From: Thelephora terrestris
Taxonomy: Eukaryota > Basidiomycota > Agaricomycetes > Thelephorales > Thelephoraceae
Assembly (NCBI GenBank): GCA_015956445.1
Contig: WIUZ02000002.1
Location: forward strand, 3,162,001 to 3,226,000
DNA length: 64,000 bases
Direction of reading: 5' to 3'
Under the pieces are notes generated by a model that saw only the letters and a program-made list of their open reading frames with translations, was not told where the DNA came from and searched no databases. The stretch's first letter is position 1. Each line of letters opens with the position of its first letter. Both the position numbers and the translations under genes were made by a program. Below, one piece after another: positions 1 through 18,562 of the stretch.

Positions 1-1615
1 AGCATCTTCTGGGGAAATACCCTCCCTTTGCAAACGCAGTCTCTCCTTAGCTTCGTCGCGTTGGGCGACCTTCATCTCTAAATCGGCCTTGAGCTTTCTC
101 AAGGCATCCTCGAAACGGCGCTGCAAACAACACGATGAATTCATAGTGTGAAGGTGAGAGGGAGGGGACTCAAACCTTGATGAGAGGATTCGAGGAACTG
201 GCGATTTCGTGCTCCTTCTTCGCCACGGCTGCCGAAAGGTCTCGAATTTCCTCGTTCAGAAGTTTCATTGACTGCGAGGTCTCATCATCTTCATCCTCTT
301 CCTCTTCTTCGCTGTCGTCCTCGTCGTCTTCGTCGTCGTCATCATCTTCGTCACCCTCTTCGCCTTGATCACCGAACACCATATCAAGCTCTGCCGCCAG
401 CTCTTCGTCGATCTCACCATCTGGCTCCTCGTCACTCTTGTCATCGTGAGCGCCCTCGTCCTCACCGAAGTCGGCCGGTGTTGCGAGGTCTCCGGCTTCT
501 GAGGTGGGGCCTGGAGTAATCGGGTTGACTATGGGGTCACGATCCACCAGTTCCGAGTCTGAGAGATCTGGATTGACGTTTTCGAGTATCTCTTTTGACA
601 GGGGTTACCCGGAGTAGACTTTGGGTGATAGGGCGGACGTACCGTACTTCACGTCCGATGCTTGCGCATCGGCTTCCAACAACCGTTCAACCGCCTCTTC
701 CACGCTCTCAATCGTCTAATATGGGTCACACATTATTCTGTTGCACGCAACTGAGCGAGTCAGCGGGGAAACGTACTCTCTTGTTGATTCGTTTGCGGAA
801 CCGTCGTTTCCGGACCCAATGTAGTGGAGGCGTGATTCCGTGCGGCCACAGGAACTCGTCGACGTCGAACTTTCGCTCAGGCTGGTGGTGTTCATCAACT
901 ATCTTGTCTTGAACCACGAGCATCTACAATCTCGCGAGTCAACAGGGTCCTGGTTGATTTTAAGGCAACCCCACGAAACCTGACAGATATCCGCGACTTT
1001 GAACATCTGCTTGTTGTCCAAAGTCTTTTGTGATTCTATCACACATGGCAGGTCGACGAGTCGAGAGGAGTAGGTCGAGTTTCCAACGTGAAAGACGCCG
1101 CGCCGTGAATCTGACACCAAACGTAAGCTCGCGGCAGTGCGGTATGTCCTGGATGCGAGAGACGAACCTTTGAACTTGAACCAGACGTCGTCTGAAATCT
1201 CTCTCGATGATACAGTCTTCCTCAGCTTCTCACAGTCCTCCCCTGGCGGCAGTCTCAGGATGAATTGTTCTTCAAATGCCAGTTCTTCCTCGTCGTCTGA
1301 GTCGAGCTCGCGATCGTATGGCCCCAAGAATGACATCCCAGGAGCTTGGGCGGCAGCCTTCTCGCTCAGCTTCAGTTTCAACTTGGGCTGTGATTTTGCT
1401 TTCTGCAGGCCGCGCAACCTATCAGAAGAGTCGGAAATAATCGGTGTCTGAGCCATTGACACTGTTCTGCGCGGTCTGCCAGAGGTGGACACGCCGGTGG
1501 ACATTGGAGTTGCAGGGGTCGGAGGGTTTCCGTAGAAAGAGTCAGGATTTGTCGTGATGTCCAGTCCAAACCCAGACAGGTCATTGTCATCGACGACTAT
1601 CAAATCTTCTTGCAT
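1..1615 (-). CDS. TAF7: TFIID subunit TAF7 (TAFII55), 3' end outside the window
   Basis: Component of the TFIID general transcription factor, acting in the nucleus at RNA polymerase II promoters. The TAF7 core domain is clear: EEQFILRLPPGEDCEKLR, then DDVWFKFKDSRRGVFHVG, LVDLPCVIESQKT, MFKVADICQMLVV, DEFLWPHGITPPLHWVRKRR and FRKRINKRTIESVEEAVE. These pieces join in frame when GT-AG introns at 1111-1167, 924-979, 716-776, 592-642 and 121-175 are removed. A long Asp/Glu run follows the core (about 280-370) and then a heptad-like basic/acidic helix that leaves the window at base 1. I chose the ATG at 1613-1615 (MQEDLIVVDDNDL); the frame stays open upstream to about 1810, where a TTGCAG acceptor-like site suggests a possible extra 5' exon. 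The sequence and order of blocks are seen; the function is from the family. Confidence 0.9.
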
Positions 1616-1908
1616 GGCGATGGATTGTTGAGCAGACCGGAGGACAGATGGGCACAGACCCAGTCGCTCACGGTTGCCGATGAATCGACTGACCATCTGC
1701 GGTTTGTCCTCTACTTCCACTTGGTCGCTCTTTTCCCACGGTCCCCTCCTGCGAGGATTCGTCCCCTGGAGGGCCATCGCTGGACATCGGTCACTCTGGA
1801 ACATCTGCAACAGTCAATTGGGGTAAGTTGGTTGTAGAGATCAGGTTGGATCACGTACTGGAAGCGGATACAAAGCCTACGGGCCTCTCTGCTGACGGGT
1901 AAGGTCTG
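1616..1908. other. TAF7 upstream region, possible 5' exon and promoter
   Basis: The frame of TAF7 continues upstream of the chosen start to an acceptor-like TTGCAG near 1806-1811. A donor-like GTACGT on the minus strand lies about 45 bases further upstream. A short 5' exon or leader exon is therefore possible. No other gene is visible. The outer family-L LTR is inserted at 1914, about 300 bases upstream of the chosen ATG. Confidence 0.4.
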
Positions 1909-1913
1909 CTACC
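1909..1913. repeat. Target site duplication CTACC, left copy (outer LTR)
   Basis: CTACC directly precedes TGTCAGG. The same five bases follow the other end of the outer element at 19434-19438. Five-base duplications are usual for LTR-element integrase. Confidence 0.85.
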
Positions 1914-2541
1914 TGTCAGGCCGACGCGACCTCTACAGTTCAATAGCACTCTTGCTATCCAAACCTATCACACTCAGGGGTCAAACACACAGTTATGACC
2001 CTGTTGCAAACCCAGGGATATCGGAAGTCTCTTCACAGACTAGATAAGAGAAGAGGAGAAAGAAGGAGACAAGGGTCTTCAGGCACTCTTGCTCTAAGCA
2101 CACAGCAGTAGAGGTCACGGAGAGTCTGATGATAACAAATCTAAGGAGTACAGGCTAAACTACTCTGAGTATATATACTACTTAGATTTGTGATGTGACC
2201 GTTACATGTAACTACCCTAAAGATACAAACACAGACAAACATGGTCCGTGCGCAGCACTGCATGGTCTGTGCGTTACGTGGTGACTAATGCTACAAATTA
2301 TCAGCTGATAAACGAAAGTGTGGCGGCCAATAGCAATTTGAGAGCATTACAGAGCAATTACAAAGCATGACGTAGCCTGGGAATGTTCGGAAGGAATGTG
2401 GATATGACTGACTAACAGCCAATGGCAAAAGGGGAGCATATGACTAAGAAATAGGGGCATATGATGTCATGTGGGTCATGCGCAGTAAACAATAGAAATG
2501 ATGACTCAACTCCTGAGTTGTGAAAGGGGCGTGGCATTTGG

Positions 2542-2548
2542 TATATAA
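2542..2548 (+). promoter_or_regulatory. TATA box of the family-L LTR gene
   Basis: TATATAA lies about 60 bases before the ATG at 2608. A short leader with pyrimidine-rich stretches and the start context GCCAACATG follow. The same box is kept in the inverted family-L copy, where it reads on the minus strand at about 18724-18732. The spacing is typical of a fungal core promoter, so it is likely to be the promoter of the coiled-coil gene rather than of the retroelement. Confidence 0.5.
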
Positions 2549-2607
2549 CCAAAGGGGGTTGGATGACTGGTCTTCCAACAAACCTCCCTTTGTTACACAC
2601 AGCCAAC

Positions 2608-3872
2608 ATGCCTCGTGCTTCTACTCGCAATCCCACTCGTCGTTCCTCCTCCTATTCTCCTGTTCAGGAGAACAACTACAACATTGACCGCTTCTCCCAT
2701 GCCCGCCGTGATCCGTCCCGCCCTTATCCTACTTTGGGAGCGGTTATGGACCGGACCGCCACCGCCGACCCTAATGAGGGGTTCTCTGATTTAGGTGGGG
2801 GCCCTGCTTGCGCATTCCGATTTAGGAAACCAAGCTAACTCCTTTTAGGTTTCAGGGACTTTCTCCAGGCCGCTCGTAGGGTGTCTCGGCGCAAGTTGGC
2901 GCGTATCGAGACTAACCCGTATGCGAACGAACTCCTCAATAGGGGTGTTGAGTTCGTGACTGAGGCCAACGAAACCTTCAACTCCGTGTTGGAGGCCAGC
3001 GTTCTCCATACGGGGAACGTTGGGTCCATGTTGATGGACGAAGTGGCTCACGTCAACGAGCGTATTGATGGTCGTCATGAGGAGATTGAAGCCTTGGAGA
3101 ATTGGAAGGAGGATATGCAGGGGGTCATTCATGGACAGGAAGATAGTGTTGTTCGGCAGGGGGCCGACATTGATTTGCTGAAGGTAAATGTGGGGTCGGG
3201 AGATAATTGACTTCTCTAACCCAACATTTCCTTTTTAGGGAGAGGTGACTACTTTGAAGGACTTGGTCCGGGCTCTGGTTACCAAAACCGGAGAATTGGA
3301 GGACGATAAGGTAAGGGGTAGGGGTTGAAGATAATTGATCTCTTCTAACCCTATTCCTTTAGGTTCGCCTTACTCGTCGTGTCTCCGAGTTGACCGGAGA
3401 AGTTCGGGATCTCCAGAGGAGGTGCATCGAGCCGGAAGTCCGAGTCGAAGAGGAGGATGAAGAAGAGGTTCTGCATCGGGCCGGGTCGCCGATAATTCCC
3501 AATCGGGCTGAGTCGCCTCCCGCTCGTCTGTTAGTTCGTCACGAGAACAGGTTGGTTCCTGTTGATGATGAGGTTATCGAGATCGGGAGCGACGAGTTCT
3601 ATCAGAACTTGGGAGTTGTTCGTAGGGACACCCCTCGTCCTGGTTTCGTATCTACTCCTTGGGGTAGTCGCCGTCAATGGCCTGCTCTGGAGTATGATCC
3701 GTATGCCGAGTTCGTTCCTGATAGCGAACCGAACTCTGACACAGAGCTTCCAGATTACGACGACTTGTCGGACGTAGACCCGAACGAGATCTGGGAGCAG
3801 AACTGGGTGAATGAGGAGTTGGTGAGATCGGCGTTGGAAGTAGTACAAAGGATTCGAAGAGATATTGATTAG
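2608..3872 (+). CDS. Family-L LTR-borne coiled-coil protein, four exons, function unknown
   Basis: I do not recognise this family. Exons 2608-2794, 2849-3183, 3239-3310 and 3363-3872 join in frame at GT-AG borders and give about 367 residues. The N-terminus is basic and Ser/Arg-rich (MPRASTRNPTRRSSSYSP). A long charged helical region with heptad-like spacing runs from about residue 65 to 215. The last 150 residues are acidic and Pro-rich, with DDEVIEIGSDEFYQN and a tail ending VVQRIRRDID. A TATA box precedes the ATG by about 60 bases. The inverted copy encodes nearly the same protein, with changes that leave the frame open across the last exon. That pattern suggests past selection on the protein. 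It could be a captured host gene or an element accessory gene. Confidence 0.6.
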
Positions 3873-4267
3873 ATAACTCTTTTGTACTGTCGGCTTCCAA
3901 TTAATCTTCTTTCTATTTTGTCTATTGTGCGTGATCCATGAGTCATAAAACATAATGGTTTTCGTAAGTCCAATCCAAGGGTCAGATTAATAAGCCGGTT
4001 GACTTCTGCGAGAGGTCAGCGCGCGACGCTTATTAATACATCCCTTGTTGTCGGTAGCCTGAATATCTACTAGTCGTCCAGGGGCAACGGAGGGCCAGGT
4101 AGGGGGGATCTTCGTATGAAGGTCCGCCGGTACATGTTCACGTATTATACCTCGGGTCTTCTGGGGTATCTTGACTAGTAGCACGTTCCACGTATTGGAC
4201 TTTGAGTCGTTAAGCATAGAGCATACTGCATAATAAACAGTTTACCGCCGTGTTTAGGGCAGGGCAC
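3873..4267 (-). other. Non-coding 3' part of the outer family-L LTR
   Basis: No gene seen. This stretch is the end of the outer LTR up to the point where the inner copy is inserted. It contains a 20-base motif (4038-4057) shared exactly with the chromovirus LTR at 6676-6695. The last five bases, GGCAC at 4263-4267, are the left target duplication of the inner LTR. The reverse complement of most of this stretch recurs from about 4345 onward in the inner LTR, which produces the apparent palindrome. Confidence 0.7.
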
Positions 4268-4731
4268 TGTGATGATTTCGCCGTTTACCCCCTTTCATTT
4301 CCTTTATTTAACGCCTCATCACCACTAAGTCAGTTGGTGCCTTGCCCTAAACACGGCGGTAAACTGTTTATTATGCAGTATGCCCTATGCTTAACGACTC
4401 AAAGTCCAATACGTGGAACGTGCTACTAGTCAAGATACCCCAGAAGACCCGAGGTATAATACGTGAACATGTACCGGCGGACCTTCATACGAAGATCCCC
4501 CCTACCTGGCCCTCCGTTGCCCCTGGACGACTAGTAGATATTCAGGCTACCGACAACAAGGGATGTATTAATAAGCGACGCGCGCTGACCTCTCGCAGAA
4601 GTCAACCGGCTTATTAATCTGACCCTTGGATTGGACTTATGAAAACCATTATGTTTTACGACTCATGGATCACACGCAATAGACAAAATAGAAAGAAGAT
4701 TCATTGGAAGTCAACAGTACAAAAGAGTTAT

Positions 4732-5892
4732 CTAATCAATATCTCTTCGGATCCTTTGTACTACTTCCAATGCCGATCTCACCAACTCCTCATTCACCCA
4801 GTTCTGCTCCCGGATCTCGTTCGGGTCCACGTCCGACAAGTCATCGTAATCTGGAAGCTCCGTATCAGAGTTTGGTTCACTATCGGGAACGAACTCGGCG
4901 TACGGATCATACTCCAGAGCAGGCCATTGACGGTGACTACCCCAAGGAGTAGAAACGAACTCAGGAAGAGGAGTGTCCCTACGGACGACTCCTACGTTCT
5001 GGTAGAATTCGTCGCTCCCGATTTCAATGACCTCATCATCAATAGGAACCAACCTATTCTCATGACGGACCAACAGACGAGCGGGCGGCGACTCAGCCCG
5101 ATTAGGGATAATCGGCGACCCGGCCCGATGCAGAACTTCCTCTCCCTCTTCTTCTTCGACTCGGACCTCCGGCTCGTTACACCTCCTCTGGAGATCCCGG
5201 ACTTCTCCGGTCAACTCGGAGACACGACGGGTAAGGCGAACCTAAAAGAATAGGGTTAGAAGAGATCAATTATCTTCAACCCCTACCCCTTACCTTGTCG
5301 TCCTCCAACTCTCCGGTCTTAGTAACCAGAGCCCGGACCAAGTCCTTGAGAGTAGTCACCTCTCCCTAAAAAGAAAGTTTGAGTTAGAAAGGTCAATTAC
5401 TCCTGACCCAAACTTTCTTACCTTCAACAAATCAATATCGGCACCCTGCCGAACGATGCTATCCTCCTGTCCGTGAATTACGCCTTGCATATCTTCCTTC
5501 CAATTCTCCAAAGCTTCAATCTCCTCACGACGACCATCAATGCGCTTGTTAACGTGAGCCACTTCGTCCATCAACATGGACCCAACGTTCCCCGTATGGA
5601 GAACGCTGGCCTCCAACACGGAGTTGAAGGTCTCATTGGATTCCGTAACGAACTCAACACCCCTATTGAGGAGTTCGTTCGCATAAGGGTTGGTCTCGAT
5701 GCGCGCCAACTTGCGCCGAGACACCCTACGAGCAGCTTGGAGGAAGTCTCTAAAACCTAAAAGGAGTTAGCTTGGTTTCCTAGATCGGAATTCGCAAGCA
5801 GGGCCCCCACCTAAATCAGAGAAACCCTCATTAGGGTCGGCGGTGGCGGTCCTATCCATAATAGCCCCCAAAGTAGGATAAGGGCGGGATGG
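4732..5892 (-). pseudogene. Inner family-L coiled-coil gene, major part, interrupted by the chromovirus
   Basis: This is the counterpart of the gene at 2608-3872, on the minus strand. The last exon (ending at 4732) and the upstream coiled-coil exons are preserved with the same intron positions. The first exon is cut at 5892, where the 12.7-kb chromovirus lies; its remaining 5' piece is at 18563-18666. Treated as a fossil of the interrupted LTR. Confidence 0.7.
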
Positions 5893-6675
5893 TGTCAGGG
5901 CCACTCTACCCTAACCACTACCAGTGCACTGAGCCGACTCCGCAGAGTACTCACTAGTCCAACTAGTTTGTGAGAGAACGATCACGTCTCTATTCTTCCG
6001 GTAGGTTGTCCGAGGTCACTACAAGTCAGGTCGAAATCCTAAAGAGAAACCCAACCTAAACCGTACTTCGTTCGGTTTAACAAGCAAGGGTTTATCCCTA
6101 CAACAGGATTGATGACTCCACCAGTTGATCGACTGGACGCTCGAGGTGTTCTAATATGACTGCTGGGAGTCTATAGTTACGAGGCGCAGTTGACGCGCAG
6201 AGCGGGAGGGAGAGCAGATGGGGGTGTCTTGGATCAAACAAAAAACTCTGACTTGTCCTTAACTGCAACTGGGCTGAGAAGGGCAGAGGATTTCCTGAGG
6301 TAACAAAACTAAGGTACTACGATACAGCCACAGTTGCTACTTATACTTAAAGGAGTGGCCATGACGTCAATACCCTAATATACCCTTATCAAGCCAGAAC
6401 AAAGGGAGATAAGGAGTGTGAGAACGCTAAGTAAGGGAAGCGAACAAAGGTGACGCGTGAGAGAATAAAGGACAAAGGGCCTTACTAGCGTGTGAAGGAT
6501 TGCATAAAAGATAACGAATGTCCGCATGAAACATAGGGGTAGAGATAACACTAGTCCTAAAAGAAAGAGGGGCATGGGTCATGAAAGTTCGTACCTGAAT
6601 CTAGACCACACCCAAGGGTCAGGTGAGCACCGTCTCTGAGCTTCTGTGATTGGCTAGAGATCAAAGGCACTCTAC

Positions 6676-6695
6676 ACATCCCTTGTTGTCGGTAG
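6676..6695 (+). repeat. 20-base motif shared with family-L LTRs
   Basis: The sequence ACATCCCTTGTTGTCGGTAG occurs here and, in the second LTR, at 16017-16036. It also occurs in the outer family-L LTR at 4038-4057 and in reverse complement in the inner one near 4552-4571. The flanking sequence is not alike. It could be a conserved regulatory or packaging site, or a trace of common descent. Confidence 0.5.
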
Positions 6696-7220
6696 GTGGT
6701 ATGATACCAACGGACAGGCAGTAACCTGGGAGTTGCAGCCGTAATCGCTTGATCAGACCCAGTCTTGATTAGGCATAGCACCTGGGAATATCGTTCTTCC
6801 TAAGTGGCACCAGGGATTATATTCTTCGGCCGCCGTTCTCGGCTCGGGCCTACTCTGCTTCCAAAGCACAACTAGATCAGATAGGGTTACTATCCGATTA
6901 GAAGCACAGTGTCCAAATGTTGATACCCCGTGCCCACGTGTGTGTTCCAGGGTCTAGGGTTGTTCGTAATCGTAAAGTCATGAGGGGTCGTAAAGAGGGG
7001 TTCGTGATGTCATAAAGGGGTCATCAGGGTCTTGAGACCTATTTTTAGTGCGCGCGCGTTCTAGGCGTTCCGGAACGAAGTTCTTCCAAGGCCGTCCCGC
7101 GGGCCGAGGTGTCAGCTTGATGTAGTAAGCCGACGATGATGGTACAGGGGCGGAAGTTGATGTGACCCGGACCAATGAGGTTCGTCGAGGTAGGTCACGT
7201 GAAGGATCACCGATCTAGGC

Positions 7221-7230
7221 TATAAGAAGG
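7221..7230 (+). promoter_or_regulatory. TATA box of the chromovirus LTR gene
   Basis: TATAAGAAGG lies about 73 bases before the ATG at 7294, followed by a leader rich in CA and CT. The same arrangement is found in the second LTR at 16562-16571. It is on the opposite strand from the retroelement's own promoter. Confidence 0.5.
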
Positions 7231-7293
7231 ACGTCTTCTTGGAGCCATCCTTGATCAGCAACACCAGCAACTTCCCCATCCTCTTACCAAAAC

Positions 7294-8897
7294 ATGTCCT
7301 TCCCCAACAACCATACCTACAAAGTCGCCAATGGTATCTCTACCATCTCTCGCATCGACCGTCGTGCCGCCGCTCGCAAGACCTATGCCTGTGCGGCTGG
7401 GACTCCCTATACCACGGATGATCAGGTATGGGGGAGAGCTAGAGCTTCGTGTGTTTGCACTAACGCCTTCCTCTAGGTAGAGGTTACGTTCTTTAGGGCG
7501 TTGATGTCCTGCTAACGGCTTCTAGATCTTGGAGGTTGTCACAGAAGTGGACCCCGAACGTCTCAGGGAGACGATGCCTCATTTGACGGGGTTGACCTGG
7601 GACGACGAGCTCTGGGTCCGTACGATCATTGCCGAGAAGGTGGCCTTCCGGATGAGGGGTAGGTTCGGGGAGCTGGAGCATCCGATCAAGAAGGAGCTCT
7701 GGTATACCCTGCAAAGGGGAATCTACGATCAAGACCTATTGGAGCACGGAGCAACCGTTCCTCGGGCCGTCCGCCATGCCACCGCCGCCACCTCGTTACT
7801 GTGGTCGCTCGTTCGGGAGGGGGAGAGCAAAGTAGGTTCTCCGTTTGGATATTCGAGTATGACTCTCGACTAACCAAACTGCCTAGGTTGAACGATTGGA
7901 GCGTGAAGTGAAGGAAGCGAAGGCAGACGTCCTTCGTCTGTCAGCAGAGGGTCTTCAGATGAAAGAGACCTTGGCGGCCTTCCAGCAGGGGACGAACGAG
8001 GCGTTGGAGGCAATGGTCGCCAACCATCAAGAGTTGATCGCTGGGTTGAAGGTTCGGGACAACAACATCAAGGGGGCGTTGGCCAGGAGGGATGAAAAGG
8101 TAATGCCGCTTTCATCATTGCTTAAGATGATGGAAGCTGACATTTCCTAGACCGAAGAACTCGAGAACGTGGTGGCCGTGTTGACAGCGCAGGTCGAGTC
8201 CTTGCAGGACAAGACCTGTAACTGCAAGGAGGGTCCCAAATTGGTTGGTCAGGGGACCGCCGATGTTCCGTTCGAGTTGGAGTACGCCGACGAGGTGGTA
8301 CTCCCTTCTCCTAACCCGTCGTCCTATGCGACGCCTCCGATCGAGAACTCGGTTCCCGTTCCGACTCCAGGTCCGGCTTCCACCTTGGCCGCTTCCGACA
8401 AGGAGAACTGTGGGCGCTGCGTCTTGCAGCCGATCCATCAGTTGGTGAAGATCGAGGATGAGGTCATGGAGGTTGACCGAGCCGAAGATGCTCCGAGGGT
8501 CGCCGAGGTACGTCCGGTGACTAAGGGGCAACGTTGCAAGCGCTCTCGACGCCGTCCTGCTCATCGCATGGCTCCATCGGCTAATCCTTACCCTCGACCA
8601 GTTGAGTCGGATGGTGACCAATCTGATCGAGGTGGGGGACGAGAGTTCCGCTATCGGGTCCACCGTCCCTACCGACAGGTCGAGTCGGAGATCCAGCTTC
8701 GCCACCAGCTACGACTCGCAAGACAGGATCCCACCCAGGGGTCCGACGAGGGAGACGGAGGGTCGCTTGCCGACTACGTCGATAGTGCTGTCGAGCAGTC
8801 ACCCGGTGATGGCGATGTGGGACCAGGTGTTCCAGAGTTCAGTGACATCTGGGAGGCTGATCGGTCCGCTCGAAGGAGTCTCTTCCTATCGGCTTGA
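7294..8897 (+). CDS. LTR-borne antisense coiled-coil protein, four exons (left LTR copy)
   Basis: I do not recognise this family. Exons 7294-7425, 7526-7831, 7887-8099 and 8151-8897 join in phase 0 at GT-AG borders and give 465 residues. An N-terminal helical region contains LTWDDELWVRTIIAEKVAFR (about 70-90). A coiled coil (about 147-240) follows, starting VERLEREVKEAKADVLRLSA. Then come a Cys pair (CNCKEG), a Pro/Ser-rich disordered stretch, a basic patch (KRSRRRPAHR) and an acidic C-terminus. It lies wholly inside the LTR and antisense to gag-pol. It resembles the family-L LTR gene in layout (TATA, four exons, coiled coil, acidic tail) but not clearly in sequence. Expression and function are unknown. 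Confidence 0.6.
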
Positions 8898-9216
8898 ACT
8901 AGTCGTTCAGCTGAGTGCCGAAGATGGTGACGCCATGTTCGGGGAGGTTCTTGCGAGGAGGGGCCAGCACTACGATCTCCGGGATGGACGGTTGGTGACC
9001 TTCAGGCCTGCCGTAGATAGAGTCGACTTTTAAGGACGTAGGATAGCACTTGTATAGCTCGTTGTGGATTCGCTGGGAATAGTACGCGCGTGTGTGTGTT
9101 TCGAATGATTGGCATGAAGGATAAGGAGTGTGAAGCATTCAAAACATAAGAAGTGGTAAGAAAAGTTCGAAGAAAGAGCGTGTTATAAAAAGTTTAAAAA
9201 TACCATGTTCCTGACA

Positions 9217-9230
9217 TTATCCTCTTCCTG
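9217..9230 (-). other. Polypurine tract of the chromovirus
   Basis: Read on the minus strand, CAGGAAGAGGATAA directly precedes the 3' LTR. A purine tract next to the 3' LTR is the usual plus-strand primer of these elements. Confidence 0.6.
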
Positions 9231-9236
9231 GATTGA

Positions 9237-12200
9237 CTAGTCCCTAGTCAATGATCCAATAGGCCATTTTCGAACATCGGTATGAATTGTCATGGGACGA
9301 TGATCTAAAAGGCCTATCCTCTTCCTGCCGCGTTTCTTCCTGGTGGTAACGGGTTTGCCTGCCATTGTGCCATCAGGTAGTCGTCGTGGTGCGCCTGGGA
9401 ACTGCTTATAGAATTCAGCAATTAGTTCCGGGGAATTCTCGAGGTTGTCTTCATCTTCCCAAGAATTTTCAGTGTCCGGCCAGCCTAACCACTTGACGAG
9501 GTATTTGAGGTTACCGTGTAAGAACTTGGCATCGAGGATTTTCTCTACTTCCCATTCGGGTTCGCCTTCGACGATATCCGGGGGTGGACGAGGGTGATTG
9601 GGGTTAAGAGGATCTTCGTGGTAGGGGAATATCTTGGAGACATTCCAGACGGAATGAACGTTCTTCCAGTAGAGGGGTAGCTTGAGTCGATAGGCATGTG
9701 TGCCAATTCTCTCGATGATCTCAAAAGGACCAGAGTATCGCTCGGATAGCTTTCGGGAAGGACGGTTCAAAGCTAAGTCTGAATTGTCCAAGAGGACCTT
9801 GTCTCCAACATTGAACTCGGGGGTCTTGTTCCGATGACGATCGTAGAACTTCTTCATATCTTCTGCTGCTTTAGTCAAAGACTCTTCCGTTTGTTTCTGC
9901 ACCTCGTGAAGGTGAGATACAAAGTCTTCGACTGACTCGATGGGGGATTGAACTCGAGGGAGGGAACCAATGTGAGGGTGATAACCGTAATTCGCATAGA
10001 AAGGCGTGGTTTTGAGACCAGAATGATAACGGTTGTTAAGAGCGAATTCGATAACAGGGATCCAGTCGACCCAATCGTCTTGATGATAGGATATGACTGT
10101 GCGAAGGGCCTGTTCGACTTCTTGGTTGGTTCGTTCCGATTGTCCATCGGTCTGTGGATGATAAGCAGTAGACAGAGCAAGTTCCACACCTAGTTGTTTG
10201 CAAATTTCCCTGAACGATCGTGAAGACATTTGGGGACCTCGATCAGTGATGATCTTCTTGGAGGTACCATGACGTTTCCAAACGTTCTCCAGGTATAACT
10301 TGGCAAAACCACTAGTATCAAGGGTATCAACGGTGGGGGCGACGTGTTTCATCTTGCCTCGTTTGTCGGTATAGGTAACGACCGAATTATATCCTTGGCA
10401 AGGAGGAAGACCGGTGATCAGATCAGTGGTGACGACTTCCCAAAACCCTGGTGTAACGTCAATAGGTTTGAGGAGTCCGTGGGGTTTCTGATTTCGGTTT
10501 TTCTGAGTTTGGCATATGTGGCAGTTCTGAACTCGTTCCTTGATTTCTGTCCGCATCAGTGGCCAATAGAAGTCCCTCTGTATGACTTCTAGACTGCCTT
10601 TGATTCCGGGATGAGCTGCAGGTCCTGAGGCGTGCAACTGCTGGAATACTTCCGAGCGTAGGAGGGATGGAACGTAGATCTTGCCACGATAAGTCCATAG
10701 TTCGCCTAGTAAAGCCCAACCGTTGGGTAGACCGTCAATTTCGGAAGACAGTTGACTTTCAGTCATCGTGTTGAATCCTTGGATAAGTGGATCCTGTGAT
10801 TGAGCGATGGCAATTTCTTTTCCAAAGTTTCGCTCATTGAGGGTTTCAGTGATGACCGAATTGATCTTCTGTGCTTCGAAGTGGTCTTTGAAGAGGGAAG
10901 GAGGTAGGAGGATTTGTTCTTCGTCGGGCACATCCTTTGGGACGTGGTCTGCGCGACGAGAGAGATGGTCAGGGACAGATGATTGTCTGCCTGGTCGATA
11001 ACGAAATTCGAAATAATAGTTGGCCAAGATCTGTGACCAACGTGCCTGTCGCTTGGACAGTTTTCGTTTCGTTTTGAAGTACTGAAGGTTGTTGTGATCG
11101 TTAAGGATGGTGATGGGGAACTTGGTTCCCATAAGGAAGTGATGGAAAGCTTCCAGTGCGCGGATAATAGATAGGAGTTCTCGGTCGTGAGTGTCGTAAC
11201 GCGTCTCCGGATCTGTGAAACCTTGAGAAAGACAGCCAATTGGTCGCCATTTTCCTTCGTCATCTTGCTGTGACAAAACAGCACCCCAGGCATAACCTGA
11301 AGCGTCCGTTTCGAGAATGAACTGTTTCTCGTTGTCTGGATGAAGGAGAAAGGCTTCCTGAAGGAGGAGGTCCTTCAACTTTTGGTAGGCGTCTTGTTGA
11401 GGAGTTTCCCATTTCCAGGGAGCGTCTTTTCGTAAAAGGTCGTTGAGAGGTCGTGCAATGATGGAGAAGCCAGGGATGAAACGGCGGTAGTAGCTCATGA
11501 TGCCTAAGTAGGCTCGTAGCTCGGAAACGGTAGTGGGTATCGGCCAATCTGTAATTCCTGCGAGTTTGACAGGGTCTGGACGGATTCCTTTGCCCGAGAT
11601 ATAATGTCCTAAATAAGGAATCTCTTTCTGCATGATAACACACTTTTCCGGTTTAAGGGATAGTTTGTGTTCTCGACAGAGTTGGAAGATTTCTTTAAGA
11701 ACAGAGAGATGAAATTCTTCAGGGCTGAGGAGTTTCCGTGGATCGTAGGAGGTTCCGATGCCTATGTCGTCGATGAAGGTTCCCGTATCGCCTCGTCGTA
11801 TCTGAACGATGAAGATAGAGTCCATCATGGTCTGGAAAGTGGCAGGAGCATTGCACTGTCCAAACGTCATGACGAGGGATTCGAAGAGTCCTCGGTTGGT
11901 GGTGAACGCAGTTTTCCATTCGTCGCCTTCGCGCATTCGGACATTGTAGTATCCAGAGCGAATGTCGAGGGCAGAGAAGTACAGACAGCCTTTCCATTTC
12001 TGGATAAGCTCGTCAATACGAGGAAGGGGGTAGGCGTTCTTCTTGGTGATGTCATTGAGTCTTCGGTAATCGATAACCATACGTTTCTTGCCATCCTTCT
12101 TATTGATAAAGAAGACGGGGGATGCCAAGGGAGACTCTGAACGACGGATTCGACCATTTGCGAGGTTTTCTTCGATGAAGATATCGAGTTCCTTTTGTTC

Positions 12201-13055
12201 ATCGTAGGAAAGGGGATAGGTGTGTGGTTTCCAAAGCTGTGATTCCCAATCGGGTACTAGCTCGATTTTGTGATCCCATTTTCGATGTGGGGGTAACTCT
12301 TGATAGGTCATTTCTTCGAATACGTCAGCATACGCCTTGAGTGGTCCTTTTCGAATGTCTTCGATGGTCAGGACTTTCTTGTTCTTCAAGTCGTCTATAG
12401 CCCAACGCATAGCGGCGTTTTCTTTGGCATTGATGGAGTGAGTGATGCGATTGATGTCGAATTGAGAAGAGTACTCCGTGATAACCGAAGCGAAATCAAG
12501 TGCAGAGGGTAGAACGTCGGATAGAGATTGATGAGCGATGCATGAGGAGGGACATCTGGTGAATGAGACCTGTCCAGTTCGCCAATCGATTTCCGGATTG
12601 TGGGTTCGTAACCAGGTCATACCAACGATCATAGTCTTGGTGCCTATGTCCGTAACAAGGAACCATTCGGTAGAAATGTGTCCTTTGAAGCTAAGGGTAA
12701 GCTTCGTTTGATGGGTAATGGTAGTGGCGTTGAACGTGTCGTCTGCGTTGATGGCATAGATAGGGGTAGTGAGCTTTCGAGTAGAGAGAGCATGATCTTG
12801 AACAAATGAGCGTGAGATGTAGGTGGCGGTTGCGCCAGAATCAAGGAGGGCTTCGATGTCGTAAATTTCGTCAGATGAAACTGCAATCTGCAGTTTGATC
12901 ATGGGGAATAATCGTGAAAGTCGTGACGATGTTCTGTTGACAACTTTTTGGTTTTCGAGAGCGGCGAGGGGATGCAATGAGAGTGGGAAAGCAGATTCAA
13001 TTCGCTGCTTAAGGGATGCTAAAAGTACATGGGATTCAGGAAAAGAGGGGATCAT
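9237..13055 (-). CDS. pol: Chromovirus Pol polyprotein (protease, RT, RNase H, integrase, chromodomain)
   Basis: One open frame of 1272 residues encoding the replication and integration enzymes of the element. Domains in order: aspartic protease with LLDSGATATYI (about 70-80); reverse transcriptase with FIDDIGIG at about 427; RNase H with ILETDASGYAWGAVL; integrase zinc-binding region (HPGIKGSLE ... CHICQ, about 815-860); integrase core with TTDLITGLP, DRGPQMSS and HPQTDGQSERTNQE; chromodomain near the C-terminus (WEVEKILDAKFLHG ... LVKWLGW, about 1165-1225). The chromodomain is known in this group to guide integration to heterochromatin. The domain order and full length suggest a whole, recently active element. 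Confidence 0.95.
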   Translation of the reverse strand: MIPSFPESHVLLASLKQRIESAFPLSLHPLAALENQKVVNRTSSRLSRLFPMIKLQIAVSSDEIYDIEALLDSGATATYISRSFVQDHALSTRKLTTPIYAINADDTFNATTITHQTKLTLSFKGHISTEWFLVTDIGTKTMIVGMTWLRTHNPEIDWRTGQVSFTRCPSSCIAHQSLSDVLPSALDFASVITEYSSQFDINRITHSINAKENAAMRWAIDDLKNKKVLTIEDIRKGPLKAYADVFEEMTYQELPPHRKWDHKIELVPDWESQLWKPHTYPLSYDEQKELDIFIEENLANGRIRRSESPLASPVFFINKKDGKKRMVIDYRRLNDITKKNAYPLPRIDELIQKWKGCLYFSALDIRSGYYNVRMREGDEWKTAFTTNRGLFESLVMTFGQCNAPATFQTMMDSIFIVQIRRGDTGTFIDDIGIGTSYDPRKLLSPEEFHLSVLKEIFQLCREHKLSLKPEKCVIMQKEIPYLGHYISGKGIRPDPVKLAGITDWPIPTTVSELRAYLGIMSYYRRFIPGFSIIARPLNDLLRKDAPWKWETPQQDAYQKLKDLLLQEAFLLHPDNEKQFILETDASGYAWGAVLSQQDDEGKWRPIGCLSQGFTDPETRYDTHDRELLSIIRALEAFHHFLMGTKFPITILNDHNNLQYFKTKRKLSKRQARWSQILANYYFEFRYRPGRQSSVPDHLSRRADHVPKDVPDEEQILLPPSLFKDHFEAQKINSVITETLNERNFGKEIAIAQSQDPLIQGFNTMTESQLSSEIDGLPNGWALLGELWTYRGKIYVPSLLRSEVFQQLHASGPAAHPGIKGSLEVIQRDFYWPLMRTEIKERVQNCHICQTQKNRNQKPHGLLKPIDVTPGFWEVVTTDLITGLPPCQGYNSVVTYTDKRGKMKHVAPTVDTLDTSGFAKLYLENVWKRHGTSKKIITDRGPQMSSRSFREICKQLGVELALSTAYHPQTDGQSERTNQEVEQALRTVISYHQDDWVDWIPVIEFALNNRYHSGLKTTPFYANYGYHPHIGSLPRVQSPIESVEDFVSHLHEVQKQTEESLTKAAEDMKKFYDRHRNKTPEFNVGDKVLLDNSDLALNRPSRKLSERYSGPFEIIERIGTHAYRLKLPLYWKNVHSVWNVSKIFPYHEDPLNPNHPRPPPDIVEGEPEWEVEKILDAKFLHGNLKYLVKWLGWPDTENSWEDEDNLENSPELIAEFYKQFPGAPRRLPDGTMAGKPVTTRKKRGRKRIGLLDHRPMTIHTDVRKWPIGSLTRD

Positions 13056-13120
13056 AGGGGTATCGTCCGCAATCTGAGAAAATTCAAGACTCGCCGGTGT
13101 TGTCTGTCCGGTTTGTCCAT

Positions 13121-14575
13121 CTAAAAAGACTCCTGGTCTTCTTGTCCCATATCTGGTCCATAATTTGGGGCTCCTGGGATCGAGCCAAACGGTTCTTCTT
13201 CTAAGTCAATAAGATTTTCTTCTTCTTCTGCTTCTTCTTCGTTGTCAAACACTCCTGCTTCTTCGAATGCTGCCAAGGGATCTTCCAATTCGTATTCGTC
13301 GTTCGCTTCCTGTCCAAAACCTTGAATACCATAGATGTATTCTAGAGCGTGCTCTAGTTGTTGAACATGGGTGGAGTCCAACTGTCGAATGTTGGCCGTG
13401 CAATTCCTAGCGTAATGGCCAGGTTGGTTACAGGCGTAACAAATGACCTTTCGAGGAGGGGGTTTGGATCCAAAGGGTTTGGAGGGATTTGGTTTCTTCG
13501 ATGAAGATGACGGTTTGAGATTTCCACCAGTAGGATAAGGAGCTAGACGAGGGTGTGCGGCTCTGACAGGAGGTTTGGACTGTGGTCGACGTAGAATGAC
13601 TCGGGGTTGTTGGCGCATGGCGTCGACTTGCATAGGTCCATAACCTTTGACAGTGGAAGGTTGGTAGTTTTGGTGTTGAGTGTTCTTTCCAAAACTATTT
13701 CCGTATTCGTGCCTGTCATATTCCCTAGTCGAGTCTAGCTGTTCTTGCATTTGAATCAACGCGTCCCTCCACTCATCGTAAGTAGTAGGAGGTCTTTCGC
13801 GCATAAGGAGTTGTGTGCGAAAGGTTGGAAACGTGTTTTGCTTCAAATGGAAGAAGGCCTGTGGTTTGGTGATATCAACCGCTTGTCGTCTGAAATCTTC
13901 GAATGCGTCGTAGAAAGCTCGGCACTTTTGACCCTTGTTTTGCTTATAGGCCATCATCCTTCGATGGAAGTATTGGGGAGCGTTTTGTATCCCGTATAGC
14001 TTCAGGAATTGTGCAGTGAAGGCATCCCAATTATCGAAGTAATGAGGTTTGACGTTTCCAGCGGTACTGGTGGCCAAAGCGTTGCGAACATTCTGCGCCC
14101 ATTGCTTGGTTTTATTGCACTTGCTGAGAAGGTTAAGGGTGACAAGAATTCGATTCTTCGTGTACCTCATAGCTTTAGGCTTCGTTTTGAAGTAAGCGGC
14201 AAGTCGGTCCAAGAAGGGTTGTGCGTCCGTTTCAGCTCCAGAGAATTCTTCAGGCATGGGAAAGTCTTTAATGTCTTCAACTCCAGGTTCCAACGGAAAC
14301 GACTCATAGTTGACGTTAGCTGTTGGGGTGGATAGGATAGGATTGGTGACTGTCTGAATCCGTTGAGGAGGAGTGATAGCAGTAAGGAGGGCATTGAAGT
14401 TAGCTTGGGTAGCTAATGGTGCGGCCTGTGCAGCTGTAAGCTGTTGGTTCAACGCTTGGTTTTGTGCTTGAAGTTGTGTTTGTAAGGCTGCCGATTGTAC
14501 CAAGTAGCGTTGCAGATCAGTTGCATCTGCTACGTTGTAGGTGTCATTGCCCAGGGTAACGTTGTTGACTGCCAT
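13121..14575 (-). CDS. gag: Chromovirus Gag with CCHC zinc knuckle
   Basis: A 484-residue frame upstream of pol. It has a Gln-rich N-terminus, a capsid-like helical region (RILVTLNLLSKCNKTKQWAQ ... DNWDAFTAQFLKLYG) and a basic linker. A nucleocapsid zinc knuckle, CYACNQPGHYARNC, and an acidic tail follow. The reading frame stays open for several hundred bases upstream as a Pro/Ser-rich stretch without an obvious ATG (up to about 15130), so the true N-terminus may be longer. How Pol is expressed relative to Gag cannot be told from sequence alone. Confidence 0.9.
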   Translation of the reverse strand: MAVNNVTLGNDTYNVADATDLQRYLVQSAALQTQLQAQNQALNQQLTAAQAAPLATQANFNALLTAITPPQRIQTVTNPILSTPTANVNYESFPLEPGVEDIKDFPMPEEFSGAETDAQPFLDRLAAYFKTKPKAMRYTKNRILVTLNLLSKCNKTKQWAQNVRNALATSTAGNVKPHYFDNWDAFTAQFLKLYGIQNAPQYFHRRMMAYKQNKGQKCRAFYDAFEDFRRQAVDITKPQAFFHLKQNTFPTFRTQLLMRERPPTTYDEWRDALIQMQEQLDSTREYDRHEYGNSFGKNTQHQNYQPSTVKGYGPMQVDAMRQQPRVILRRPQSKPPVRAAHPRLAPYPTGGNLKPSSSSKKPNPSKPFGSKPPPRKVICYACNQPGHYARNCTANIRQLDSTHVQQLEHALEYIYGIQGFGQEANDEYELEDPLAAFEEAGVFDNEEEAEEEENLIDLEEEPFGSIPGAPNYGPDMGQEDQESF

Positions 14576-15219
14576 GACTAGTGGAGGTGTCTGAAGAGGT
14601 GGTAAAGGTAGAGGGCTTGGCGCTGTCGGTGTAGGAGGTCGTGAAGCAATTGGAGATTCTGGAGAACGAGGAAGATTTGGAGAAGTAGGAGGAAATACCG
14701 GGGAGGAATGGTGAGACGAACGAGGAGATTGTTGAGAGACTGGGGTGACTCTTCGAAGAGCGTCTTCGTAGACTGAGTGATCTGAAGAGGCCGGGGTAAC
14801 TGGCCTAGGCTCTAGTGGTTCGTCGTCGTCAAGGAAACCTCCAGGTAGATCTGAAAGTTGAGAAGAAGAGGGGAGAAGAGCGAGTTGGCGTGGGACTGGG
14901 GTGTTAAGAGGGGACTGAGAAGTAGGAGTTGATTGAAAGGAGGGGATACGAGGGGTGAAACGAGATAAAAGAGTTGAGCTGTTCGAAGCGAGAGTAGCAC
15001 GGTACGCTCGAGCTTCAGCTGGAGATGAGAGACGTTGTAAAGAGGGTTGAGAGGGTGAAGGCTGTGTACGACGCCTTTGAGGGGTGTCTTCTGTAGACGA
15101 ATCTGATTCCTCTCCTGAGACAGGGGGCCGAAATATGCTTCTGTTAGACGAAATGGTTGTCCGTCTTTAAGTAACAGTGATAGTTTCGCGATGTGGTGGG
15201 TGAACAAGGTACCGGCTGG
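14576..15219 (-). other. Chromovirus leader between 5' LTR and gag
   Basis: In the gag frame this region is an open Pro/Ser/Thr-rich stretch (for example SSHHSSPVFPPTSPNLPRSP). It may be an N-terminal extension of Gag or untranslated leader. No other gene is supported. Confidence 0.5.
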
Positions 15220-15231: not shown

Positions 15232-15233
15232 TC

Positions 15234-18200
15234 TGTCAGGGCCACTCTACCCTAACCACTACCAGTGCACTGAGCCGACTCCGCAGAGTACTCACTAGTC
15301 CAACTAGTTTGTGAGAGAACGATCACGTCTCTATTCTTCCGGTAGGTTGTCCGAGGTCACTACAAGTCAGGTCGAAATCCTAAAGAGAAACCCAACCTAA
15401 ACCGTACTTCGTTCGGTTTAACAAGCAAGGGTTTATCCCTACAACAGGATTGATGACTCCACCAGTTGATCGACTGGACGCTTGAGGTGTTCTAATATGA
15501 CTGCTGGGAGTCTATAGTTACGAGGCGCAGTTGACGCGCAGAGCGGGAGGGAGAGCAGATGGGGGTGTCTTGGATCAAACAAAAAACTCTGACTTGTCCT
15601 TAACTGCAACTGGGCTGAGAAGGGCAGAGGATTTCCTGAGGTAACAAAACTAAGGTACTACGATACAGCCACAGTTGCTACTTATACTTAAAGGAGTGGC
15701 CATGACGTCAATACCCTAATATACCCTTATCAAGCCAGAACAAAGGGAGATAAGGAGTGTGAGAACGCTAAGTAAGGGAAGCGAACAAAGGTGACGCGTG
15801 AGAGAATAAAGGACAAAGGGCCTTACTAGCGTGTGAAGGATTGCATAAAAGATAACGAATGTCCGCATGAAACATAGGGGTAGAGATAACACTAGTCCTA
15901 AAAGAAAGAGGGGCATGGGTCATGAAAGTTCGTACCTGAATCTAGACCACACCCAAGGGTCAGGTGAGCACCGTCTCTGAGCTTCTGTGATTGGCTAGAG
16001 ATCAAAGGCACTCTACACATCCCTTGTTGTCGGTAGGTGGTATGATACCAACGGACAGGCAGTAACCTGGGAGTTGCAGCCGTAATCGCTTGATCAGACC
16101 CAGTCTTGATTAGGCATAGCACCTGGGAATATCGTTCTTCCTAAGTGGCACCAGGGATTATATTCTTCGGCCGCCGTTCTCGGCTCGGGCCTACTCTGCT
16201 TCCAAAGCACAACTAGATCAGATAGGGTTACTATCCGATTAGAAGCACAGTGTCCAAATGTTGATACCCCGTGCCCACGTGTGTGTTCCAGGGTCTAGGG
16301 TTGTTCGTAATCGTAAAGTCATGAGGGGTCGTAAAGAGGGGTTCGTGATGTCATAAAGGGGTCATCAGGGTCTTGAGACCTATTTTTAGTGCGCGCGCGT
16401 TCTAGGCGTTCCGGAACGAAGTTCTTCCAAGGCCGTCCCGCGGGCCGAGGTGTCAGCTTGATGTAGTAAGCCGACGATGATGGTACAGGGGCGGAAGTTG
16501 ATGTGACCCGGACCAATGAGGTTCGTCGAGGTAGGTCACGTGAAGGATCACCGATCTAGGCTATAAGAAGGACGTCTTCTTGGAGCCATCCTTGATCAGC
16601 AACACCAGCAACTTCCCCATCCTCTTACCAAAACATGTCCTTCCCCAACAACCATACCTACAAAGTCGCCAATGGTATCTCTACCATCTCTCGCATCGAC
16701 CGTCGTGCCGCCGCTCGCAAGACCTATGCCTGTGCGGCTGGGACTCCCTATACCACGGATGATCAGGTATGGGGGAGAGCTAGAGCTTCGTGTGTTTGCA
16801 CTAACGCCTTCCTCTAGGTAGAGGTTACGTTCTTTAGGGCGTTGATGTCCTGCTAACGGCTTCTAGATCTTGGAGGTTGTCACAGAAGTGGACCCCGAAC
16901 GTCTCAGGGAGACGATGCCTCATTTGACGGGGTTGACCTGGGACGACGAGCTCTGGGTCCGTACGATCATTGCCGAGAAGGTGGCCTTCCGGATGAGGGG
17001 TAGGTTCGGGGAGCTGGAGCATCCGATCAAGAAGGAGCTCTGGTATACCCTGCAAAGGGGAATCTACGATCAAGACCTATTGGAGCACGGAGCAACCGTT
17101 CCTCGGGCCGTCCGCCATGCCACCGCCGCCACCTCGTTACTGTGGTCGCTCGTTCGGGAGGGGGAGAGCAAAGTAGGTTCTCCGTTTGGATATTCGAGTA
17201 TGACTCTCGACTAACCAAACTGCCTAGGTTGAACGATTGGAGCGTGAAGTGAAGGAAGCGAAGGCAGACGTCCTTCGTCTGTCAGCAGAGGGTCTTCAGA
17301 TGAAAGAGACCTTGGCGGCCTTCCAGCAGGGGACGAACGAGGCGTTGGAGGCAATGGTCGCCAACCATCAAGAGTTGATCGCTGGGTTGAAGGTTCGGGA
17401 CAACAACATCAAGGGGGCGTTGGCCAGGAGGGATGAAAAGGTAATGCCGCTTTCATCATTGCTTAAGATGATGGAAGCTGACATTTCCTAGACCGAAGAA
17501 CTCGAGAACGTGGTGGCCGTGTTGACAGCGCAGGTCGAGTCCTTGCAGGACAAGACCTGTAACTGCAAGGAGGGTCCCAAATTGGTTGGTCAGGGGACCG
17601 CCGATGTTCCGTTCGAGTTGGAGTACGCCGACGAGGTGGTACTCCCTTCTCCTAACCCGTCGTCCTATGCGACGCCTCCGATCGAGAACTCGGTTCCCGT
17701 TCCGACTCCAGGTCCGGCTTCCACCTTGGCCGCTTCCGACAAGGAGAACTGTGGGCGCTGCGTCTTGCAGCCGATCCATCAGTTGGTGAAGATCGAGGAT
17801 GAGGTCATGGAGGTTGACCGAGCCGAAGATGCTCCGAGGGTCGCCGAGGTACGTCCGGTGACTAAGGGGCAACGTTGCAAGCGCTCTCGACGCCGTCCTG
17901 CTCATCGCATGGCTCCATCGGCTAATCCTTACCCTCGACCAGTTGAGTCGGATGGTGACCAATCTGATCGAGGTGGGGGACGAGAGTTCCGCTATCGGGT
18001 CCACCGTCCCTACCGACAGGTCGAGTCGGAGATCCAGCTTCGCCACCAGCTACGACTCGCAAGACAGGATCCCACCCAGGGGTCCGACGAGGGAGACGGA
18101 GGGTCGCTTGCCGACTACGTCGATAGTGCTGTCGAGCAGTCACCCGGTGATGGCGATGTGGGACCAGGTGTTCCAGAGTTCAGTGACATCTGGGAGGCTG

Positions 18201-18557
18201 ATCGGTCCGCTCGAAGGAGTCTCTTCCTATCGGCTTGAACTAGTCGTTCAGCTGAGTGCCGAAGATGGTGACGCCATGTTCGGGGAGGTTCTTGCGAGGA
18301 GGGGCCAGCACTACGATCTCCGGGATGGACGGTTGGTGACCTTCAGGCCTGCCGTAGATAGAGTCGACTTTTAAGGACGTAGGATAGCACTTGTATAGCT
18401 CGTTGTGGATTCGCTGGGAATAGTACGCGCGTGTGTGTGTTTCGAATGATTGGCATGAAGGATAAGGAGTGTGAAGCATTCAAAACATAAGAAGTGGTAA
18501 GAAAAGTTCGAAGAAAGAGCGTGTTATAAAAAGTTTAAAAATACCATGTTCCTGACA
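15234..18557 (-). repeat. Chromovirus 5' LTR (right copy), 3324 bp
   Basis: Same length and ends as 5893-9216. It supplies the element's own promoter on the minus strand: TATA-like CTTATACTTA (plus) at 15681-15690 and an initiator-like region at about 15641-15652. It also contains the second copy of the antisense LTR gene. Confidence 0.93.
16635..18238 (+). CDS. LTR-borne antisense coiled-coil protein, four exons (right LTR copy)
   Basis: Exons 16635-16766, 16867-17172, 17228-17440 and 17492-18238. The predicted 465-residue protein is identical to that of the left LTR as far as I can see. The two copies stay alike because LTRs are copied from one template at each transposition. In this copy the gene lies within the 5' LTR, so its transcript would run away from gag toward the outer flank of the element. 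Confidence 0.6.
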
Positions 18558-18562
18558 GATGG

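What the first reader, a model, noticed from the sequence alone, without database searches (positions are those of the whole stretch)
7294..8897. A spliced, antisense coiled-coil gene lies wholly inside the LTR of a chromovirus
The 3.3-kb LTR holds a four-exon gene with a TATA box and 465 codons, on the strand opposite to gag-pol. Retroelement genes are rarely intron-containing, because introns in the sense strand are lost in the RNA intermediate. An antisense gene escapes this loss. The gene is therefore copied twice per element with its introns. To my knowledge antisense accessory genes are known elsewhere (for example HBZ of HTLV-1 and antisense frames of some plant Gypsy elements), but I know of none that is spliced and LTR-borne in fungi. 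This could be a new type of accessory system.
Basis: partly seen in the sequence, partly recalled or inferred. Interest (0 to 1): 0.85.

Follow-up and report, generated by a model that had tools for sequence, protein, structure and literature searches.

The report
Spliced antisense gene inside retrotransposon LTR
The long terminal repeat of a young fungal-type retrotransposon carries its own intron-containing, protein-coding gene on the opposite strand; the pattern of mutations in many copies shows that the protein has been kept working, although what it does is unknown.

Summary
A chromovirus lies at 5893-18557 with two 3,324-bp LTRs (1 mismatch, 5-bp TSD). Each LTR holds, antisense to gag-pol, a four-exon frame (7294-8897; copy at +9341) with GT-AG introns and 465 codons. 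Genome copies show it is a real gene: no exon indels in the 40 best-matching loci; dN/dS 0.089 over 38 sequences (other frames 1.3-3.5, except one reverse frame sharing its third positions: 0.19, full of stops); coding constraint missing from the introns; exon order kept down to 68% protein identity; TATA box invariant. In six full-length elements dN/dS is 0.063 (a pol piece: 0.015). Common variants are strongly filtered, singletons much less: selection acted on the transposing lineage.

Two corrections. Constraint leaves the main frame near 8815 and continues in the +1 frame to 9033 (frameshift or second ORF; no convincing fourth intron). And 31 of 39 LTRs examined are solo LTRs with exact TSDs: losing gag-pol leaves the gene.

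No Pfam or PDB relative. I favour a nuclear coiled-coil regulator of the element's own LTR (HBZ/APH-like in position), about 40%. Expression was not testable. New variant of the known antisense accessory genes.

The parts
5893..9216 (-). 3' LTR of the chromovirus (left copy), 3,324 bp, TGTCAG...CTGACA
15234..18557 (-). 5' LTR (right copy), 99.97% identical
5888..5892 (.). target-site duplication GATGG, left
18558..18562 (.). target-site duplication GATGG, right
7221..7226 (+). TATA box TATAAG of the antisense gene, invariant in 35 aligned sequences and in L041, L048, L053
7294..7425 (+). exon 1 (44 codons)
   Evidence: dN/dS 0.044
7426..7525 (+). intron 1 (100 nt; 8 distinct indels among copies)
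7526..7831 (+). exon 2 (102 codons; helical in a low-confidence model)
7832..7886 (+). intron 2 (55 nt)
7887..8099 (+). exon 3 (71 codons, coiled-coil-like heptads)
   Evidence: (dN/dS 0.014)
8100..8150 (+). intron 3 (51 nt)
8151..8897 (+). exon 4; this frame is constrained only to about 8815
8815..9033 (+). +1-frame coding segment (72 codons plus stop at 9031-9033), C-terminal part of the gene's product or a second ORF
16635..18238 (+). second copy of the four-exon gene in the right LTR (coordinates +9341; exons 16635-16766, 16867-17172, 17228-17440, 17492-18238)
18156..18374 (+). second copy of the +1-frame segment
13121..15166 (-). gag frame (CCHC; Retrotrans_gag below its cut-off)
9237..13205 (-). 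pol frame: protease, RT, RNase H, integrase, chromodomain

Best explanation
SHOWN: a protein-coding gene with three introns sits entirely in the LTR, antisense to gag-pol, with its own TATA box, and has been under purifying selection while the element multiplied; it is present in both LTRs and in solo LTRs that have lost gag-pol. INFERRED: as an antisense gene its introns are not spliced out of the genomic RNA, so it is copied whole as LTR sequence. The TATA position puts the gene in U3, back to back with the element's sense promoter. The product is probably a nuclear coiled-coil protein (heptads across exons 2-4, KRSRR basic cluster, acidic Pro-rich C-terminal half) that acts in trans on the element's own LTR chromatin or transcription, as HBZ and the APH proteins do for HTLV LTRs, tuning how much gag-pol RNA is made. 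Likelihoods: real coding gene 0.97; spliced as modelled 0.92; +1-frame segment in the same protein 0.6; self-regulator of LTR expression 0.4. The confidence below is for the whole statement with its mechanism.
For: Gene: dN/dS 0.089 and 2 stops against 175-764 stops in the other frames; 141 of 150 scored exon 4 matches without a stop in the matched 222-224 codons; all four exons in order with introns at the same places in L053 at 68% identity. Introns: in-frame reading of introns gives dN/dS 1.20, 2.90, 0.79, indels in intron 1 but none in the exons of 40 loci, GT-AG at all three introns in 40 of 40. Element gene: full-length elements carry it intact in 8 of 8 LTR rows, dN/dS 0.063, and singleton variants are far less filtered than common ones. 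Promoter: 7100-7293 differs 1.2% against 3.8-6.8% in exons, TATA invariant. Regulator: position, basic cluster and heptads, and analogy to HBZ/APH, described as spliced, nuclear or partly nuclear, and down-regulating LTR expression (PMC10186651 passages).
Against: No RNA or protein evidence. No Pfam or PDB relative, so function rests on position and weak sequence features. No bZIP or known DNA-binding domain. A trans-acting self-repressor is not obviously favoured among many copies in one genome. The single-sequence model of exon 2 is too poor to use (pLDDT 57). The mode of the frame switch is unresolved. One reverse frame also shows a low dN/dS, 0.19, though with 629 stops. Some copies are broken: 2 of the 40 loci have early stops, 2 of the 8 added are a frameshift and a stop, and several divergent copies are truncated, interrupted or carry stops.
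Confidence: 0.42

Rival explanations
1. The protein is a cis-acting helper of replication or integration (nuclear import, chromatin tethering, particle assembly) rather than a transcriptional regulator.
For: Selection on the transposing lineage is easiest to explain if the protein favours the element that encodes it; basic cluster and heptads; the review of plant antisense ORFs proposes nuclear roles (PMC7264820).
Against: pol of this element already has a chromodomain; expression from a separate antisense promoter gives no evident link to particle packaging.
Confidence: 0.22
2. The protein is an anti-silencing factor that keeps LTR copies expressed against host RNAi or heterochromatin; convergent antisense transcription would itself make dsRNA that such a factor must counter.
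For: Many copies with few private changes; the gene is convergent with pol at the 3' LTR.
Against: No similarity to any Pfam family above its cut-off; silencing state unknown.
Confidence: 0.2
3. A host gene captured by the LTR that now serves the host; solo LTRs are a domesticated gene family.
For: 31 of 39 LTRs examined are gene-bearing solo LTRs; the spliced structure resembles a nuclear gene.
Against: Singleton variants are only weakly filtered (relative N/S about 0.4 against 0.09 for common ones), so recent changes in mostly solo copies show relaxed constraint. Whether a copy exists outside any LTR was not tested: match lists were capped and flanks of most matches were not read.
Confidence: 0.08
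4. Chance open frame or non-coding antisense RNA.
For: No direct expression data.
Against: Frame-specific constraint, exon-intron contrast and conservation to 68% protein identity.
Confidence: 0.02
5. For the C-terminus: a fourth intron, not a frameshift or second ORF, joins exon 4 to the +1 frame.
For: Other introns exist; many possible GT/AG pairs restore the frame in the window.
Against: The acceptor at 8902 is absent in 13 of 50 sequences (in L053 an AG stands three bases on). Frame 0 is constrained to about 8815 and frame +1 from about 8820, leaving little room for an intron, though in the window 8790-8834 all three frames lie between 0.40 and 0.62. No GTA donor or CTAAC-like branch site seen there by eye.
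Confidence: 0.15

Closest known systems
Antisense additional ORFs of plant Gypsy elements (Grande gene23, RIRE2, Retand) - PMC7264820 (parts 1-2 of 3 read), PMC11963269 (passages)
   Same: Antisense to gag-pol, conserved in most copies, own promoter in Grande, some products nuclear, function unknown
   Different: Those lie in the internal region between pol and the 3' LTR; here the gene is inside the LTR, has three introns, is present twice per element and survives in solo LTRs
brtn of Boty elements, Botrytis (Zhao 2011; cited title and mentions only)
   Same: Antisense gene of a fungal LTR retrotransposon
   Different: Described as between pol and 3' LTR; whether it has introns was not seen
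HBZ / APH genes of HTLV-1 to -4 (PMC10186651 passages)
   Same: Antisense gene expressed from the 3' LTR, spliced, product down-regulating the sense LTR promoter
   Different: Those belong to retroviruses, start in the 3' LTR and are not known to me as wholly LTR-contained genes (recalled); HBZ has a bZIP; none found here
MMTV sag (recalled, no call)
   Same: Protein gene inside an LTR
   Different: Sense strand, retroviral superantigen
Mytilus Steamer-like element antisense ORF (PMC10974842 passages)
   Same: Antisense mRNA from the 3' LTR of an LTR retrotransposon with an ORF
   Different: 67-codon ORF; no conservation evidence in the passages seen

Membership tests
Chromovirus (chromodomain Ty3/gypsy LTR retrotransposon) | LTRs with TSD, gag, pol with integrase followed by chromodomain | tested here: met
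   3,324-bp LTRs, GATGG TSD, RT/RNase H/rve then Chromo at residues 1218-1267
Antisense additional ORF (aORF-3R) | Antisense to gag-pol and present in most copies | tested here: met
   of 40 LTR-end matches 34 coincide by position with an exon 2 match; the other 6 were fetched: 5 hold the whole gene region, 1 is truncated inside it
Antisense additional ORF (aORF-3R) | Lies in the internal region between pol and the 3' LTR | tested here: not met
   gene 7294-9033 lies inside LTR 5893-9216
Antisense additional ORF with TRP28 domain (Retand type) | PF04195 domain | tested here: not met
   not among the families listed at E up to 10
HBZ-type retroviral antisense gene | Antisense transcript initiated in the 3' LTR | not testable with these tools
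   no RNA data; TATA in LTR only
HBZ-type retroviral antisense gene | Spliced coding sequence | tested here: met
   by substitution pattern and splice sites, not cDNA
HBZ-type retroviral antisense gene | bZIP domain (HBZ; APH-2, -3 and -4 lack it) | tested here: not met
   no bZIP family in Pfam scans
LTR-resident gene such as MMTV sag (recalled) | Sense-strand ORF in LTR | tested here: not met
   gene is on the strand opposite to gag-pol

The most novel reading that the evidence does not exclude
The LTR itself is a self-sufficient gene cassette: the element multiplies its trans-acting nuclear protein by seeding solo LTRs, so that deletion of gag-pol by LTR recombination turns each insertion into a lasting, intron-bearing helper or immunity locus. 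The gene's C-terminus is made by a +1 frameshift or an overlapping second ORF in dual-coding sequence.
Probability: 0.28. Interest if true: 0.88.

Novelty: new variant of a known kind. Interest (0 to 1): 0.7.

Why it matters
Antisense genes of LTR retrotransposons are known, but the review seen here says their functions are unknown (PMC7264820). This case gives unusually clean evidence that such a protein matters to the element: frame-specific selection on the transposing lineage, weaker on recent changes. Its place inside the LTR means introns are tolerated, each element carries two copies, and solo LTRs, usually regarded as dead, keep an intact gene. That makes the question 'what is an antisense retrotransposon protein for?' testable, and it warns that long LTRs should be scanned for spliced genes.

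Tried and rejected
Rejected: chance frame; unspliced frame (introns lack codon signal); main frame ending functionally at 8897 (dN/dS above 1 in that frame from about 8820); fourth intron with acceptor 8902 (AG lost in 13 of 50); host-maintained solo LTRs as the main source of constraint. Corrected: the three reverse-frame rows were one and the same frame by a fault in my script; one search repeats all six frames and shows one reverse frame at 0.19 (third positions shared with the real frame, 629 stops). Led nowhere: search of relatives' genomes (none held); Pfam and PDB by sequence and by profile (weak hits only, mostly to coiled coils); AlphaFold2 of exon 2 alone (pLDDT 57, not used for a fold search); five contig ends (their outer 130 bases printed) and an rDNA pattern to place the host: no telomere-like repeat seen, no rDNA match. 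Phrase searches for LTR-borne genes gave nothing comparable: one search returned 0 papers and one search returned 6, of which I opened one (PMC10974842).

Full report
1. The element. The window's self-comparison gives two direct repeats, 5893-9216 and 15234-18557, 3,324 bp with one difference. They begin TGTCAG and end CTGACA and are flanked by GATGG on both sides. Between them, on the minus strand, are gag (CCHC) and pol with RT, RNase H, integrase and a chromodomain. It is a young chromovirus on the minus strand; the right LTR is its 5' LTR.

2. The gene model. On the plus strand, 7294-7425, 7526-7831, 7887-8099 and 8151-8897 join in phase 0 to 1,398 nt, 465 codons plus stop, with introns of 100, 55 and 51 nt. 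The same stands in the other LTR at +9341, whose only difference lies outside the gene.

3. Is it a gene? The genome holds many copies: a DNA search gave 42 matches, 40 of 560 candidates being scored. I took 40 loci. The list is ranked by similarity to the window, so it leans towards well-kept copies; two of the loci (L001, L002) are the window's own LTRs and L039 repeats L007, which leaves 37 others. Nine short pieces of further, mostly older copies in the same loci were set aside. Against the window, none of the 40 has an indel in any exon, while intron 1 has 8 distinct indels, introns 2 and 3 none, and the 181 nt from 9036 on have 16. Two of the 40 have an early stop, at codons 350 and 458 (L009, L032). 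GT and AG stand at all three introns in 40 of 40. Over 38 sequences (the 41 rows less L001, L002 and L039; two twin LTR pairs remain) pS is 0.192 and pN 0.0194, dN/dS 0.089; codon positions 1, 2 and 3 vary at 102, 59 and 278 of 466. The two shifted forward frames give 1.87 and 3.01 with 412 and 764 internal stops. The three reverse frames give 1.30, 0.19 and 3.53 with 175, 629 and 434 stops. The 0.19 frame is the one whose third positions coincide with those of the real frame, so it inherits the real frame's pattern; with about 17 stops per sequence it is no gene. By exon dN/dS is 0.044, 0.057, 0.014 and 0.174; reading the introns in frame gives 1.20, 2.90 and 0.79 (introns 2 and 3 are short). 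So both the frame and its exon borders look real.

4. Depth. A protein search with exons 2-3 gave 164 matches (150 of 1,026 candidates scored); two of the listed rows have stops, and the weakest listed is 71% identical. I fetched 13 of the most divergent, plus one copy beside L007. In L053 all four exons are present in order with introns at the same places, and the four-exon product is 68% identical to the window's. Of these 14 divergent rows several are truncated or interrupted: L042 and L050 have insertions; L043, L047, L049, L051 and L052 match only part of exon 4; L041, L042, L047, L048, L051 and L052 among others carry stops. These look like old, decayed copies. With the first 224 codons of exon 4 as query, 141 of 150 scored matches (of 538 candidates) have no stop; the 9 with a stop all have TGA.

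5. A sample less biased by the gene. A search with the other end of the LTR (5893-6500) gave 40 scored matches of 457 candidates. By position (checked by eye) 34 coincide with exon 2 matches; I fetched the other six. Five hold the whole gene region and one is truncated inside it (L070). Of those five, three have the full open frame, one has a 1-nt exon deletion with a stop at codon 154 (L067) and one a stop at codon 86 (L072).

6. Who is selected? In 36 sequences (one per element), variants seen once are 98 silent and 102 replacing; seen 2-3 times 83 and 34; seen four or more times 152 and 36. Against an expectation of about 2.6 replacing per silent (kappa 3) these are relative rates of 0.41, 0.16 and 0.09. 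Common variants have been filtered hard, private ones much less: the signature of an element gene selected while the element transposes and relaxed afterwards. In six full-length elements the gene's dN/dS is 0.063 and all 8 LTR rows examined have the intact frame; a 1,500-nt pol piece of the same six elements gives 0.015 with no stops. Synonymous divergence is alike in gene and pol (0.187 and 0.169), so they seem to have travelled together.

7. Solo LTRs. Of 40 loci (39 distinct LTRs), 31 are solo LTRs with an exact 5-bp duplication, six are paired LTRs of three elements, one lacks a matching duplication (L009) and one is truncated (L022). By eye, 15 of 150 matches fall into seven same-strand sets spaced 8.4-9.3 kb apart; a further pair on C25 at 8.2 kb was not counted because one of its LTRs is a solo with its own TSD (L023). 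LTR-LTR recombination thus often removes gag-pol and leaves one gene copy. One search gives no sign that the host maintains these.

8. Promoter. 7100-7293 differs from the window by 1.2% on average, less than any exon (3.8-6.8%). GGCTATAAGAAGG with TATAAG at 7221 is invariant in 35 aligned sequences and in L041, L048 and L053. A TAAAAA on the minus strand at 7047 could serve the sense promoter; that the two promoters stand back to back is inference.

9. The 3' end. Heterozygosity by codon position shifts frame near 8820. Sliding dN/dS over 50 sequences (36 copies, eight further loci and six divergent ones chosen because they cover the 3' part) shows the main frame constrained to about 8815 and the +1 frame from about 8820 to the stop at 9031-9033, weakening after about 8955 (0.46-0.69); from 8820 on the main frame exceeds 1; around 8790-8834 all three frames lie between 0.40 and 0.62. 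TGA at 8895 is kept in 50 of 50, which the +1 frame's codons explain; ATG at 8815 is kept in 50 of 50 and a TAA or TGA at 9031 in 50 of 50. The acceptor that could join the frames (AG at 8901-8902) is absent in 13 of 50, though in L053 an AG stands three bases on. Searched with the L053 version, the +1 segment has no stop in 145 of 150 scored matches. I favour a +1 frameshift in the conserved stretch before 8858, or a second ORF from 8815; a fourth intron is less likely.

10. The product. No Pfam family passes its cut-off and no PDB chain matches below E 0.04; the weak hits are mostly coiled coils. A simple heptad score peaks at residue 140 (5.82 against a shuffled maximum of 4.0 +/- 0.5) and is high in windows starting at 122-154 and 211-220; residues 124-245 lack proline; there is a KRSRR cluster at 347, a KEN at 301 and a net charge of -12 in residues 218-465. 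KEN, and the KRS of the basic cluster, are kept in L053. Nuclear location and self-regulation are inferences from this and from position.

11. Literature. Antisense extra ORFs of plant Gypsy elements lie between pol and the 3' LTR (PMC7264820, two of three parts read; PMC11963269 passages), as does brtn of Boty. HTLV antisense genes are described as spliced, starting in the 3' LTR and down-regulating LTR expression (PMC10186651 passages). A term search inside 'LTR Retrotransposons in Fungi' (PMC3248453) found none of antisense, additional ORF or intron. Eight searches listed no paper that I recognised as a spliced gene wholly inside an LTR retrotransposon's LTR; most listed papers were seen as titles and abstract starts only. 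The library holds open-licence papers only, so this is not proof of absence from print.

12. Verdict. A real and unusual gene; existence near certain, function open. New variant of the known antisense accessory genes.

Noticed in passing
1912-5892 and 18558-19441: The chromovirus sits inside one arm of a large palindrome (2716-4267 against 5889-4337 at 92.6%; 1912-2717 against 19361-18558 at 96%).
   Followed up: partly
6597-6930: This LTR segment does not align in many of the copies, although the LTR parts on both sides do; L015 and L033 align through it. LTRs seem to carry exchangeable segments here.
   Followed up: partly
61563-62187: A truncated minus-strand LTR end (91% to LTR positions 1-621 or so).
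   Followed up: partly
L039 (G000:C58:1760000-1768000): A solo LTR of this family lies against, apparently within, exon 4 of an older, divergent copy of the same gene.
   Followed up: partly
G000:C23:1029857-1049148: Three gene copies on one strand at 9,310-bp spacing, as a tandem element sharing its middle LTR would give.
   Followed up: no
genome copies of exon 4: All nine stops found in 150 exon 4 matches are TGA, as CGA-to-TGA (CpG) decay would give; the codons they replaced were not checked. The window CDS has 9 CGA codons.
   Followed up: no
40921-42207 (-): AAA/NACHT-like frame (NACHT below its cut-off); 35262-36893 and 41894-43541 are tandem relatives at 77.6%.
   Followed up: no
899-1813 (-), 22696-23706 (+), 33484-34581 (+): Frames with TAFII55 and RRN6 K-rich domains near the element, and a copia-type RT (RVT_2) frame.
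   Followed up: no
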